Of a stretch of DNA of 10,434 bases, positions 1,539-10,434 are shown piece after piece. This stretch comes from Bacteroidota bacterium (lineage in GTDB: Bacteria > Bacteroidota > Bacteroidia > B-17B0 > Aurantibacillaceae): assembly GCA_947449125.1 (NCBI GenBank), contig CANFQR010000022.1:1-10434 (forward strand), given 5' to 3'. How positions within the stretch are numbered: the first letter of the stretch is position 1; each line of letters starts with the position of its first letter. The notes under the pieces were generated by a model. That model was not told where the DNA came from. It made no database searches and worked only from the letters and a program-made list of their open reading frames with translations. The position numbers and the translations under genes are program-made.

Positions 1539-2621
1539 ATGAAATATATTTTAACTGTTCAGGGCGAAGGTCGTGGTCACATGACGCAAGCGATAACCAT
1601 GTACGATATGTTAATAGAACAAGGCCATACTATTTGCGCAGTTATAGTTGGCTCGAGCTCTAACAGAGAAATTCCAAATTTTTTCTATAAACGAATTCAA
1701 GCTCCAATAATTCAAATACCTAGCCCAAATTTTATTACAGATAAAAAAAATAAAAGCATAAATATTACCAAGTCTGTTTTTTTTAATTTATTTAAAATAA
1801 CCAAATACAGAAAAAGTTTAAACCAAATTGATGAGTTGGTAAATAAATATAAACCAGATACAATCATTAATTTCTTTGATTTGTTAACCGGTTTATATTT
1901 TAGAATACATAAACCAAAAGCTAAACTAGTTTGTATTGCTCATCAATATATTTATTTACATCCTGATTTTGAGTTTCCAGAAGGAAATGAAATTGATAGA
2001 TTTTTAATTAAATACTACACTAAATTAACTACCATACGCTCTTCAAAAAACCTAGCCTTATCATTTTACAATTTGCATATCAAAAATGAAAACGTAATAA
2101 TTGTGCCGCCATTACTCAGAAAAGAAATATTTAAATTAGAATCTAAACAGGAAGATTTTTTTCTAGTTTATCTTGTAAATAACGGATATTTTGAAGAAAT
2201 TATCGAATGGCATAAAACAAATCAGAATATAAAAATTCATTGCTTCACAGATAATGCAGAAAAAATAAAATCAAACTACAACTATAATAAAGAAAAAATT
2301 ATGGTACACGCCATTAACGACACTTTATTTTTAGAAATGATGAGTAAGGCAAAAGGAATTGCTAGCACCGCTGGTTTTGAAAGCGTATGCGAAGCCATGT
2401 ATTTAGGTAAGCCTGTTATGATGGTTCCTATTAAAGGACACTATGAACAATTTTGTAATTCAAGAGATGCTTATAAAGCAGGCGCTGGCATATACGCAGA
2501 TAAATTTGACCTATCAAAACTTGACAATTTTTCTATTACTTTTGACTCAACAAGTCATTTTTTTAAAAATTGGATAGCCAATGCAAAATTCAGAATCTAT
2601 AAAGAAATTATCTCAACCTGA
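1539..2621 (+). CDS. GT-B glycosyltransferase of the MJ1255/MurG-like type
   Basis: This 360-residue protein starts with the glycine-rich GT-B signature MKYILTVQGEGRGHMTQA, resembling the GxGH loop of MurG and other GT28-type enzymes. Its C-terminal half has a nucleotide-sugar binding region: STAGFESVCEAMYLGKPV (276-293), then MMVPIKGHYEQFCNS, where the Glu-Gln pair is typical for UDP-sugar binding. No membrane segment stands out, so it is probably a cytosolic or membrane-associated enzyme that adds a sugar to a lipid acceptor. Donor and acceptor cannot be read from the sequence. It sits 10 bases after the LpxH-like gene and 1 base before the preferred start of the lipid kinase, which favours a glycolipid or envelope-lipid role. 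The fold and family are well supported; the substrate is not. Confidence 0.8.
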   Translation: MKYILTVQGEGRGHMTQAITMYDMLIEQGHTICAVIVGSSSNREIPNFFYKRIQAPIIQIPSPNFITDKKNKSINITKSVFFNLFKITKYRKSLNQIDELVNKYKPDTIINFFDLLTGLYFRIHKPKAKLVCIAHQYIYLHPDFEFPEGNEIDRFLIKYYTKLTTIRSSKNLALSFYNLHIKNENVIIVPPLLRKEIFKLESKQEDFFLVYLVNNGYFEEIIEWHKTNQNIKIHCFTDNAEKIKSNYNYNKEKIMVHAINDTLFLEMMSKAKGIASTAGFESVCEAMYLGKPVMMVPIKGHYEQFCNSRDAYKAGAGIYADKFDLSKLDNFSITFDSTSHFFKNWIANAKFRIYKEIIST

Positions 2622-2622
2622 T

Positions 2623-3516
2623 ATGCCTCGTAAACTATTGTTTATTGTCAACCCAAATGCAGGAAAAAAAGTTTCTTCACTCTTAATTGAAACTATTCGC
2701 AAAGAGTTTCCTCAAAACATCTATTATCAAATTGTTATTTGGAAAGATAAAAATCACTTTAACGAAATATTAGATATATTATACACACAAAATTATACAG
2801 ATGCCGTGGCTGTAGGCGGAGACGGAACGGTTAATGAAGTTGCAAAAAGCTTAATTGGCACTAATATTACTTTAGGCATAGTTCCTTCAGGCTCGGGAAA
2901 TGGCTTAGCCAGAAGCCTTGGTATATCAATGAAAATTGATGAAGCCATTAAACAAATTATTAAAGGCGAAAAAACAAAAATTGATATTGGAAAAGTTAAT
3001 GGCACTCCATTTTTTTGTACAAGCGGTGTAGGTTTTGATGCGCATATTGGAAAGTTATTTGCTACATCAGAAAAACGCGGTTTAAAAACTTATGCAAAAA
3101 TTGTACTCTCACAACTGTTTAACTACAAACCCGAAGAATATGTATTGAGTTTTGGCAGACAAATAATTGAACTAAAAGCATTTTTAATTACAGTTGCCAA
3201 CGCAGGCCAATATGGCAATGATTTTTATATTGCACCAGAGGCGAAACTTAATGACGGTTTATTTCATGTGGTTATTTTAAAACCATTTAAATTATTTCAA
3301 CTCCCTGGATTGATTTATAAACTAATTTCAAAAAAATCTCATTTAAGTTCCAGAATAGAAACATACACGTGTAACCAACTAAGAATTTACAGAAACAAAA
3401 AAAACGCAATTCATTTTGACGGAGAACCCAAATTTGAAAATGAAGATTTGTTGTTTGAACTAATTGACGAAAAATTAAATGTAATTATTGGTACAAAGTA
3501 TAAACGCAATGGCTGA
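2623..3516 (+). CDS. Diacylglycerol kinase-family lipid kinase (DagK/YegS/LCB5-like)
   Basis: The protein has the DAGK catalytic signature in order: FIVNPNAGKK near the N terminus, AVGGDGTVNEVAKSL (65-73 core) for ATP binding, VPSGSGNGLARSLGI (90-101 core), SGVGFDAHI, LNDGLFHVVIL and the C-terminal FDGEP motif (265-269). Family members phosphorylate diacylglycerol or related lipids at the inner face of the membrane, recycling DAG into phosphatidic acid. I prefer the ATG at 2623 (297 residues, MPRKLLFIVNPN), which lies 1 base after the upstream TGA and matches the usual N terminus. The in-frame ATG at 2581 would add 14 poorly conserved residues and overlap the glycosyltransferase by 41 bases. 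Translational coupling is likely. A glycosyltransferase using DAG or nucleotide-lipid products beside a DAG kinase is biochemically coherent. Sphingosine or ceramide kinase activity is an alternative, as some Bacteroidota make sphingolipids. Confidence 0.87.
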   Translation: MPRKLLFIVNPNAGKKVSSLLIETIRKEFPQNIYYQIVIWKDKNHFNEILDILYTQNYTDAVAVGGDGTVNEVAKSLIGTNITLGIVPSGSGNGLARSLGISMKIDEAIKQIIKGEKTKIDIGKVNGTPFFCTSGVGFDAHIGKLFATSEKRGLKTYAKIVLSQLFNYKPEEYVLSFGRQIIELKAFLITVANAGQYGNDFYIAPEAKLNDGLFHVVILKPFKLFQLPGLIYKLISKKSHLSSRIETYTCNQLRIYRNKKNAIHFDGEPKFENEDLLFELIDEKLNVIIGTKYKRNG

Positions 3517-5350: not shown

Positions 5351-7000
5351 ATGTCAAATAACTCAAATAAAAAATATTATCCTGCTGATTGGTTTGCAGG
5401 ATTAAAAGAAAACTTTTCAAAGGATGCCCTATCGGGTTTTTTAGTATTCTTATTAGCTCTGCCTCTAAGTTTAGGTATAGCTAAAGCATCGGACTTTCCT
5501 GCTATTTTTGGTTTAGTAACCGCAATAATTGGCGGAATTGTTGTAAGTTTTTTTGCAGGTTCTAAATTAACAATAAAAGGGCCTGCGGCAGGTTTAATTG
5601 CAATTTGTGGTGGCGCTATTGCTGAATTTGGGGGAGGAGATACAGGCTGGCACCTAGCATTAGGAGCCATTGTTGTTGCTGGATTAATACAAATTCTATT
5701 TGGTGTTTTTAAATTAGGAAAATTAGCTAATTTTTTTCCAGGTGCCGCTGTGCATGGTATGCTAGCCGCTATTGGGATTATCATAATGTCGAAACAGATA
5801 CATACGTTATTAGGTATCGACCCTAAATTTTTAAAAGGTAAAGAACCGCTTGAACTGTTAGCAATGATTCCCTCAAGTATTATGCACGAAAATGCACACC
5901 TTGCCGAAATTGGAATTGCCTGCTTATTAATTTTAATTGGTATGAGTTTTGTGAAACATAATAAATTTAAAAAAATTCCTGCACCATTAATTGTATTATT
6001 TGTTGCCATACCACTAGGTTTTGTTTTGCATATTAAAACAGATGGCGCAATTTCTAACTTTTCATTAGTGAAAATTGGAAGTATTACTGAAGCTTTTACC
6101 AATGGATTTATCATGAAAGGTGACTTCGTTAGCCGAGGCATTTTTAATGCGGATTTTAATGCATTAACAACTCATACCGGTGATTTTTTAATGTATGTTG
6201 TTTTGTTTGCTTTAATAGGAAGTCTTGAATCATTATTAACCGCAAAAGCTATTGACGGATTAGATCCTTTTAAACGCAAATCAGATTTTAATAAAGACTT
6301 AATAGCCGTTGGTTTTGGTAATACATTGTCAGGATTATTAGGCGGTTTACCAATGATAAGTGAAGTTGCTCGTAGTTCTGCAAACGTTAGTAATGGAGCA
6401 AGAACAAGGTGGGCAAATTTTTTTCACGGCTTGTTTTTACTGTTGGCAGTGTTAATTGCTGTACCATTAATTGAAATGATTCCAAATGCCGCATTGGCAG
6501 CAATGTTAACCTTTGTGGGTTTTAGATTGGCACACCCGAAAGAATTTATTCACATGTGGCATATAGGTAAAGAACAATTTTTAATTTTTACAACCACTGT
6601 AATTATTACCCTTGCTACCGATTTATTGATTGGCGTTGGTTCCGGAATTGCCCTAGAACTATTAATTAATATTATAAATGGAGCAAATTTAAAATCTGCA
6701 TTCAAATTACAGGTTAGTATTAGCAAACTAAATGAAGAAAATTATAACGTTATTATTAATGACGTTTTAGTATTCTCTAATGCCCTAGGATTAAAAAAAA
6801 TATTTTATACTCTTCCGCAAGGCAAAAACATAACTATTGATGTTAGCCAAACTAAAATTGTTGATCATACATCTATACTAACATTAAACGAGTTGATGGA
6901 AAATTACAAGGAAAATGAAGGAACAATAAAAATTAACGGGTTTGAAAATCACCGCCAGTTAAGCCATGCACCAACATCTACCAGAATACTTAAAAAGTAA
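5351..7000 (+). CDS. SulP-family inorganic anion transporter (candidate bicarbonate transporter) with C-terminal STAS-like domain
   Basis: The 549-residue protein is a SulP/SLC26 permease. It opens with DALSGFLVFLLALPLSLGIA, the first core helix, followed by TIKGPAAGL (74-82), the anion-site motif, many hydrophobic helices to about residue 440, and the conserved SLESLLTAKAIDGL (291-304) and GGLPMISEVARSSANV (331-346) segments. The last 95 or so residues (GKNITIDVSQTKIVDHTSIL) form a soluble STAS-like domain. SulP proteins move sulfate, bicarbonate or other anions across the inner membrane. The sequence resembles the SulP group often found beside carbonic anhydrases, and the DabA-family gene two positions downstream supports bicarbonate; sulfate cannot be excluded from sequence. 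The ATG start is preceded by an A-rich leader (AAAAGAAATT). An outer-membrane barrel gene follows 70 bases on with no terminator visible, so an operon is likely. Confidence 0.88.
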   Translation: MSNNSNKKYYPADWFAGLKENFSKDALSGFLVFLLALPLSLGIAKASDFPAIFGLVTAIIGGIVVSFFAGSKLTIKGPAAGLIAICGGAIAEFGGGDTGWHLALGAIVVAGLIQILFGVFKLGKLANFFPGAAVHGMLAAIGIIIMSKQIHTLLGIDPKFLKGKEPLELLAMIPSSIMHENAHLAEIGIACLLILIGMSFVKHNKFKKIPAPLIVLFVAIPLGFVLHIKTDGAISNFSLVKIGSITEAFTNGFIMKGDFVSRGIFNADFNALTTHTGDFLMYVVLFALIGSLESLLTAKAIDGLDPFKRKSDFNKDLIAVGFGNTLSGLLGGLPMISEVARSSANVSNGARTRWANFFHGLFLLLAVLIAVPLIEMIPNAALAAMLTFVGFRLAHPKEFIHMWHIGKEQFLIFTTTVIITLATDLLIGVGSGIALELLINIINGANLKSAFKLQVSISKLNEENYNVIINDVLVFSNALGLKKIFYTLPQGKNITIDVSQTKIVDHTSILTLNELMENYKENEGTIKINGFENHRQLSHAPTSTRILKK

Positions 7001-8432: not shown

Positions 8433-9080
8433 ATGACAACTAGTAAACATCTAAATCGTTTTAATGAAAACGAAGTTATACATGAGTTAAAACATTTTTT
8501 ACCGGCTCAGGCACCTTTAAAAGATTTTATACATCATAACACATTACACGCTTTTCAAAATTTAAAATGGGATAATGCCATAAGACAAGCAGAAAAAATG
8601 TTTGGGTATAAAGTTTCGCTATCACTAAATGACTATAGAAATCTATATTTTTCAAAAAAAATAAGTCATGACATATTAGAACGAACAATAGTTGAAAAAA
8701 AAGGGGCACATAATATTGAAGATTGGTCAATAAAAACAATTTACCAACATTACGACGAATCTAGTACTGCGCGAATAGGAAACTTACGATCTTTTTGGAA
8801 AACACAATATCATATTAACATAGACTCAGTAACGCATCCTAAACTATTCCGAATTCTTTGTAGTTATTTAGATCAGGGAATTGCGATTTGGAAATTCCCG
8901 ATTAACGAAAAAGGATTTTTAACTTCTTTAAGAGAACTGGAAAAAATCAGCTCTGTAAGTATATTCAATAGCGAAGAAGTAAAAAATTTATTTTTAAACC
9001 AGCGATTTGAAATTGAAGAATTATTATGCCTTTTGGTTGGAGATGAAAAACTATACAAACAATATTTATTTGATCAGTAG
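8433..9080 (+). CDS. dabA: DabA/DUF2309 protein, N-terminal part, ended by an in-frame TAG
   Basis: The 215 codons before the TAG encode the N terminus of a DUF2309 (UPF0753) protein. The hallmark LPAQAPLKDFIHHNTLHAFQ (23-42) corresponds to the conserved pro-rich, His-His-Asn motif at the start of DabA proteins, followed by a typical FGYKVSLSLNDYRNLYFSKKIS segment. DabA is the cytoplasmic, zinc-binding, beta-carbonic-anhydrase-like subunit of DAB inorganic-carbon pumps. Full family members are roughly 800 residues, so a 215-residue product would lack the whole catalytic part and should not work alone. The ATG at 8433 lies 30 bases after the barrel gene and gives the expected N terminus. The frame stops at codon 216, inside a conserved region, and similarity continues in the same frame immediately afterwards. 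The product is therefore part of a broken, read-through or wrongly sequenced gene and not a natural short protein. Confidence 0.85.
   Translation: MTTSKHLNRFNENEVIHELKHFLPAQAPLKDFIHHNTLHAFQNLKWDNAIRQAEKMFGYKVSLSLNDYRNLYFSKKISHDILERTIVEKKGAHNIEDWSIKTIYQHYDESSTARIGNLRSFWKTQYHINIDSVTHPKLFRILCSYLDQGIAIWKFPINEKGFLTSLRELEKISSVSIFNSEEVKNLFLNQRFEIEELLCLLVGDEKLYKQYLFDQ
9078..9080 (+). other. In-frame TAG stop interrupting dabA
   Basis: Codon 216 of the dabA frame is TAG, reading LFDQ-stop-FAHQGWSGMV. The flanking residues are continuous with the family pattern on both sides, with no frameshift, insertion or other in-frame stop up to the right edge. A single C-to-T transition from CAG (Gln) would create it; the true ancestral codon cannot be known from this window. 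The seven genes whose ends are visible and undisputed stop with TAA or TGA. Confidence 0.9.
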
Positions 9081-10434
9081 TTTGCCCATCAGGGCTGGAG
9101 CGGCATGGTTTCATCTATAGAAGACAATCCTCAGACTTTAATGGACCAAAAAAAAATATCACTTAAAGAATTAATTATTTTAGAATGCCTTTTGGAAATT
9201 GACACGCTTAATCATAAGTTAGGTAAAAACTGGATGCCATTATCCAATAAATTAAATGAAAAGCCTGAAGACTTGTTTGACACAATAATTTTAGATGAAC
9301 TAAGCGAAGTTTTATCAATTTGGCAAAGTGCATTTGAATGGACCTATTATGACAGTGTTTTAAGCAGTATCACTTTATCAAACAAGCAACAACATCCTAA
9401 ATCAGAAAAAACATTTCAAGCGCTATTTTGTATAGATGACAGAGAATGTTCAATAAGACGGTATATTGAGGAAAACGACACCAATTGCGAAACATACGGC
9501 ACGCCGGGTTTTTTTGGGGTAGAATTTTATTTTAAACCCGAACATGGAAAATTTTATAGCAAACTATGTCCGGCTCCTTTAACTCCAAACTATTTAATTA
9601 AAGAAATAAATACAAAAAATATCAGAAAAAAAGATGTTCACTTTACAAACAAATCTCACTCACTATTTAGTGGCTGGTTAATTTCTCAAACTATTGGTTT
9701 TTGGTCGGCAATAAAACTGTTCTTTAATATTTTCAAACCAACGTTAAGCCCTGCAGCAGCGCACTCTTTTAATCACATGGATAAATATTCGACATTAACA
9801 ATTCTGAATAAACATCCAGAAGATAAAGAAAACAACCTCCAAATTGGTTTTACCGTAGAAGAAATGGCTGCTCGTGTAAAAGCGTTATTAGAAAGCATAG
9901 GTTTAATTAAAGATTTTGCACCTATTGTATATGTAATTGGTCATGGATCAAGCAGTGTTAATAATCCGCACTATGCCGGTTACGATTGTGGCGCCTGCTC
10001 CGGCAGACCGGGATCCGTAAACTCACGTGTAATCTGTTTTATGTCTAATCACAAAGAAGTAAGGCAATTACTTGCGCAAAAAGAAATTTTTATTCCTGAA
10101 TCTACTCAATTTATTGGAGGCTTACACGATACCTCAAGAGATGATATTGAATTTTTTGATGAAAATTCATTATCCGAAACAAACCAAAAAAATCATTTAA
10201 AAAACAAAAACGTTTTTTTAAAAGCACTTAATTTAAATGCAAAAGAACGTTCAAGGAGATTAATATCAATAAATACCAAATTAAGTCCTGAAAAAATTCA
10301 CGAAAAAGTAAGAACACGTTCTGTTTCCATTTTTGAGCCCAGGCCAGAATTAAATCATGCTACCAATGCACTTTGTATTGTTGGACGAAGAGAATTAACA
10401 AAAGATATTTTTCTCGACAGAAGATCATTTCTTA
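9081..10434 (+). CDS. dabA: DabA/DUF2309 protein, catalytic part after the TAG (3' end outside window)
   Basis: The same frame stays open from 9081 to the right edge and encodes the metal-binding body of DabA. Numbering from the ATG at 8433 and counting the TAG as codon 216, I see CIDDREC with Cys333 and Asp335, GHGSSSVNNP with His504, and DCGACSGRPG with Cys519. In Halothiobacillus neapolitanus DabA the zinc-site residues are, as I recall, C351, D353, H524 and C539; the 2-residue and 15-residue spacings match exactly. Other family landmarks follow: FIGGLHDT, NHATNALCIVGRRELT and FLDRRSFL. If translated separately, the first ATG is 9105 with GGAG 4 bases upstream, but that product would lack the first 224 codons' worth of the fold. 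About 130-200 residues are missing off the right edge, so downstream partners such as DabB are unseen. Confidence 0.87.

What the first reader, a model, noticed from the sequence alone, without database searches (positions are those of the whole stretch)
9078..9080. Single in-frame TAG splits an otherwise intact dabA
The sequence directly shows one amber codon inside a frame that keeps family motifs on both sides, including all four predicted zinc-site residues downstream. No other lesion is visible over 667 codons, and none of the seven other visible gene ends uses TAG. The options are a sequencing or assembly error, a very recent nonsense mutation, suppression or read-through giving a regulated full-length product, or TAG reassignment. 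Error or recent mutation is most likely; reassignment is least likely but cheap to test.
Basis: partly seen in the sequence, partly recalled or inferred. Interest (0 to 1): 0.75.

Follow-up and report, generated by a model that had tools for sequence, protein, structure and literature searches.

The report
Stray stop codon in bacterial dabA
A metagenome-assembled bacterial genome carries one ordinary stop codon in the middle of an otherwise healthy carbon-uptake gene, most likely a very recent knock-out mutation or an assembly error, not a new use of the genetic code.

Summary
One in-frame TAG (9078-9080, codon 216) splits a frame (8433-10433) that matches Pfam DabA on both sides. The window is one whole contig of a 73%-complete metagenome-assembled genome. 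Relatives are intact there: glutamine in 18 of 19 whole-genome relatives, 70 of 73 spanning database loci and all 120 best-listed proteins, one of them 92% identical. Against that one, sequence after the stop is as conserved as before it (422/451 and 193/215), and all four departures from near-invariant columns are shared with it: no private decay. Reassignment is untenable: release factor 1 is complete, and 42 of 332 other long frames in 448 kb end in TAG. No CTA-anticodon tRNA is among 17 found, a weak test. RNA after the stop folds like shuffles. Among 120 listed short homologues, only the window's own shows this truncation; the next is 67% identical. The stop removes all zinc-site residues, so the product should be dead (inferred). 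Best reading: very recent nonsense mutation in the assembled strain; consensus error is the close rival. Reads would decide. Ordinary; low interest.

The parts
8433..9080 (+). dabA, 5' piece: 215 codons and the in-frame TAG stop
   Evidence: PF10070 profile 1-192, E 3.3e-27
9078..9080 (+). isolated in-frame TAG at codon 216, in a column where nearly all relatives examined carry glutamine
9081..10433 (+). dabA, rest of the frame up to the contig end, with the zinc-site residues; gene incomplete at its 3' end
   Evidence: PF10070 profile 197-629, E 8.9e-126; alignment to 9rd0_A
9105..9107 (+). first ATG after the stop (codon 225), with GGAG at 9097-9100; a possible but unsupported restart site
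   Evidence: read directly
5351..7000 (+). SulP-type transporter gene upstream of dabA; same order in relative L025
   Evidence: PF00916
7071..8402 (+). 443-aa protein without Pfam match between SulP and dabA; a similar-sized frame lies there in 5 of 10 relatives laid out (L025-L028, L085)
   Evidence: L025's frame also has no Pfam match

Best explanation
The TAG is a plain stop codon: a very recent nonsense mutation in the strain (or the dominant allele) that was assembled, in a dabA gene that was under selection until then. Translation ends after 215 residues inside the helical N-terminal domain, so no carbonic-anhydrase-like domain, zinc site or DabB-contacting part is made, and the DabA/DabB inorganic carbon uptake unit of this strain is presumably off. 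Shown: the codon, relatives without the stop, lack of private decay, a complete RF1, TAG ending other frames. Inferred: that the base is real, that it is recent, the loss of function, and that a dabB follows beyond the contig.
For: Nearest listed homologue P0001 is 92% identical, 833 aa, with no stop. Identity to P0001 is 193/215 before and 422/451 after the stop; the window departs from 4 of 229 near-invariant columns and P0001 departs at the same 4 plus one. RF1 complete: NF001859, 485 bits against a cut-off of 400, profile 1-347/347. TAG ends 43 of 333 long frames, this piece included, e.g. between a glycosyltransferase and an asparagine synthase gene. Catalytic residues all lie downstream. 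A single in-frame stop elsewhere in dabA is seen in another assembly (L079).
Against: A consensus or assembly error predicts the same picture, and I saw no independent assembly with the truncation: the 215-aa product is listed once, as the window's own, on a 10434-base contig (P0121). The assembly is fragmented (324 contigs, 73% complete), which makes low coverage plausible. The window's four departures from near-invariant columns are more than the median homologue's one (range 0-7), though all four are shared with P0001.
Confidence: 0.55

Rival explanations
1. Consensus or assembly error, or a minor-strain base picked up in the consensus: the organism's gene is intact.
For: Fragmented, 73%-complete metagenome assembly; single private change with no other decay; truncated product seen only as the window's own among the 120 homologues listed of 326 found; relatives without the stop.
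Against: It is the only split gene I recognised among 36 same-frame junctions in 41 contigs (448 kb, 11 of the other 35 checked by Pfam), so the assembly does not look full of nonsense errors. Frameshift errors were not looked for.
Confidence: 0.38
2. Two-piece or leaky DabA: translation restarts at the ATG 24 bases after the stop (9105), or low-level read-through makes some full-length product.
For: An ATG preceded by GGAG four bases away follows the stop. Six of the 119 listed pieces P0241-P0359 align from that methionine, column 225 (P0242, P0243, P0300, P0320, P0336, P0356), but gene calls at contig edges can explain these as well.
Against: The GGAG-ATG stretch encodes the family motif GWSGM, so it is there for the protein's sake. 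End points of the N-terminal pieces that could be placed (100 of 120; the length limit of the search bounds them) scatter over columns 140-379 with no peak near 216. RNA after the stop folds no better than shuffles (z 0.23). No relative examined shares the stop.
Confidence: 0.06
3. TAG is reassigned to an amino acid in this organism.
For: None of eight other frame ends in the window is TAG; that is common by chance when about 13% of ends are TAG (43 of 333).
Against: Complete RF1; TAG ends 42 of 332 other long frames, two of them checked as junctions of unrelated genes; no CTA-anticodon tRNA among 17 tRNAs found (150 of 173 first-look candidates scored, genome incomplete); of the three TAG junctions between frames of 100 codons or more in 41 contigs, only this one splits a gene.
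Confidence: 0.005

Closest known systems
DabA (PF10070, formerly DUF2309/YbcC), cytoplasmic subunit of the DAB/DAC inorganic carbon uptake complex; solved as DabA2 of Halothiobacillus neapolitanus (9rd0)
   Same: Both pieces match the family; counterparts of the zinc ligands and Asp-Arg dyad are present; three relatives checked (L025, L079, L085) have a DabB-like gene (PF00361) directly after dabA
   Different: An in-frame stop at codon 216; the 3' end and any dabB lie beyond the contig
Ordinary nonsense-mutated genes and single-base errors in metagenome assemblies (general knowledge)
   Same: One isolated private stop, close relative without it, no private decay
   Different: Nothing seen
TAG-recoding genetic codes (recalled, general knowledge)
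   Same: A TAG inside a frame with homology on both sides
   Different: RF1 present, TAG ends many other frames, single case

Membership tests
DabA (PF10070) | Sequence match to the family over its length | tested here: met
   Profile 1-192 and 197-629 of 747, the rest being beyond the contig
DabA (PF10070) | Zinc ligands Cys, His, Cys and the Asp-Arg dyad | tested here: met
   Counterparts C333, H504, C519, D335, R337 by alignment to 9rd0_A, all after the stop
DabA (PF10070) | One continuous reading frame | tested here: not met
   TAG at codon 216
DabA/DabB complex | Adjacent dabB (NuoL-like, PF00361) | not testable with these tools
   The contig ends inside dabA; relatives L025, L085 and L079 have it next
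TAG reassignment | RF1 lost or changed | tested here: not met
   Complete RF1, 485 bits, profile 1-347/347
TAG reassignment | TAG not used as terminator, many in-frame TAGs | tested here: not met
   43 of 333 long frames end in TAG, this piece included; of 36 same-frame junctions of 100+100 codons, three are TAG, and the two others join unrelated genes
TAG reassignment or amber suppression | tRNA with CTA anticodon | tested here: inconclusive
   None among 17 tRNAs, but the genome is 73% complete and 150 of 173 first-look candidates were scored
Programmed read-through | Stop conserved in relatives, or a downstream stimulatory structure | tested here: not met
   None of the 19 genes and 73 loci has the stop; fold z-score 0.23

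The most novel reading that the evidence does not exclude
The strain makes a two-part DabA: an N-terminal helical piece and a catalytic piece started at the ATG just after the stop, giving a lowered but still working carbon uptake unit.
Probability: 0.04. Interest if true: 0.35.

Novelty: already known. Interest (0 to 1): 0.08.

Why it matters
Little beyond this genome. If the stop is real it marks a recent loss of active inorganic carbon uptake in one strain; if it is an error it cautions against calling pseudogenes or recoding from one metagenome contig. The test set (RF1, terminator use, relatives, private decay) settles the recoding question without reads.

Tried and rejected
TAG reassignment: rejected on RF1, terminator use and lack of other split genes. 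For the last, 36 same-frame neighbours of at least 100 codons each were listed in 41 contigs, two of them in part. Apart from dabA, 11 of the other 35 were checked with Pfam: 10 have unrelated families on the two sides, and one (L130:352) has no family downstream. The other 24 were judged only by reading the junction residues. A codon-usage listing of possible split genes gave many tandem-gene pairs and was too unspecific alone; of its shorter TAG pairs I looked at four by eye (L120, L125 twice, L131) without a clear split gene and took them no further.

Old decay: rejected, because the part after the stop is as conserved as the part before it and has no private change at near-invariant columns.

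A conserved or recurrent split of dabA at this place: rejected. Break points in the database pieces scatter (many of those pieces may simply end at contig edges). Two further probable split copies, inferred from equal contig lengths and sources (P0135 with P0284; P0131 with P0347), break elsewhere (columns 241/253 and 328/331).

A stimulatory RNA structure after the stop: none seen in the 112 bases folded.

Error against real mutation could not be settled: no reads are available. The search with the downstream piece did not list the window's own 443-aa frame, so it gives no information on independent copies of the split; its length limit also excludes most full-length relatives.

One literature search was made, for the structure and zinc ligands; I made no search on whether split dabA genes are in print and claim nothing on that. 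NCBIfam gave no match for either dabA piece.

Full report
What is there. The window is the whole contig C22 (10434 bases) of a metagenome-assembled genome of 1.907 Mb in 324 contigs, 73.15% complete. That it is a metagenome assembly of a Bacteroidota member is inferred from its fragmentation and from the record titles of the nearest relatives. Its last frame runs from ATG at 8433 to the contig end with one in-frame TAG at 9078-9080, codon 216. Each piece alone matches PF10070 DabA, profile 1-192 and 197-629 of 747, so the two pieces are one gene. Upstream lie a SulP-type transporter gene (PF00916) and a 443-aa protein without Pfam match. Relative L025 has the same order, followed by dabA and a dabB-like gene with PF00361. 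In the window dabB would lie beyond the contig end. The genome search shows no second dabA, though the genome is incomplete.

Relatives at the codon. In 60 whole genomes searched, 20 have a match, the window's own genome included. At codon 216 the 19 others carry glutamine codons in 18 cases and a leucine codon in one (the two rows L019 and L022 are one gene). In genome contigs 75 loci were found; 73 span the site and 70 have glutamine, two cysteine, one histidine. The read-through protein search found 5598 proteins and listed the best 120; all 120 have glutamine. The closest, P0001, is 92% identical and 833 aa long.

No private decay. Against P0001 the window frame is identical at 193 of 215 residues before the stop and 422 of 451 after it. 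Among 229 near-invariant columns (56 before, 173 after the stop) the window departs at four, and P0001 departs at the same four and one more. The median homologue departs at one, the range being 0 to 7, so four is on the high side, but none of the four is private. The TAG is thus the only private lesion visible, as expected for a very recent change or an error.

The code is standard. The genome holds a complete release factor 1 (L023:510-1640, NF001859 485 bits, cut-off 400, profile 1-347 of 347) and a release factor 2. In 41 contigs, two of them in part (448,457 bases, 23.5% of the genome, the window included), 333 stop-to-stop frames of at least 150 codons end in a stop: 260 TAA, 43 TAG, 30 TGA; one of the 43 is this dabA piece. 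These are long frames, not proven genes. At L118:13194 TAG separates a glycosyltransferase from an asparagine synthase gene, and at L155:2640 a HAD-type phosphatase from a family 2 glycosyltransferase. Of 36 same-frame junctions between frames of at least 100 codons, only dabA looks like one gene cut in two. Eleven of the other 35 were checked by Pfam, the other 24 by eye. Seventeen tRNA genes were found (150 of 173 first-look candidates scored), none with anticodon CTA; with a 73% genome this is weak by itself.

What the stop would do. [quoted passage not shown] alanine changes of these impaired growth under CO2-limiting conditions. By the alignment to 9rd0_A the counterparts here are C333, H504, C519, D335 and R337. 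A 215-residue product therefore should end inside the N-terminal domain and has no active site. Loss of function is inferred from this.

Read-through or restart. No relative examined shares the stop and the RNA after it folds no better than shuffles. An ATG with GGAG before it lies 24 bases after the stop, but these bases encode the conserved GWSGM motif. Six of 119 listed database pieces begin at that methionine, but break points of the pieces scatter and many may be contig edges. A restart remains possible but nothing clearly favours it.

Error or mutation. The exact 215-aa product is listed once, as the window's own; the next listed homologue of like length is 67% identical (120 listed of 326). 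That fits both an error and a strain-specific mutation. The single recognised split in 448 kb argues against a generally error-ridden assembly. I put real recent mutation at 0.55 and error at 0.38; these numbers are judgement, not computed.

Verdict. The finding is ordinary.

Noticed in passing
L079:4934-4936: Another dabA in a groundwater metagenome genome (JACPDX010000046.1) is split by a single in-frame TAG, at a different place (window codon 528); both pieces match PF10070 (1-494 and 496-747) and dabB follows.
   Followed up: partly
P0135 with P0284; P0131 with P0347 (database proteins): Two probable further split dabA copies: N- and C-terminal pieces on contigs of the same length (25690 and 7536 bases), broken at columns 241/253 and 328/331 of P0001.
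   Followed up: partly
window:5351-8402: A SulP-type transporter gene and a ~450-aa protein without Pfam match sit directly before dabA, and L025 has the same order. Of ten loci laid out, L025-L028 and L085 have frames of like size there (Pfam checked for L025 only); the other five do not. A possible joined carbon-uptake gene group in part of the Bacteroidota.
   Followed up: partly
window:2581-2621: The glycosyltransferase gene (1539-2621) and the diacylglycerol-kinase-like gene (2581-3516) overlap by 41 bases as listed; the true start of the second may lie further in.
   Followed up: no
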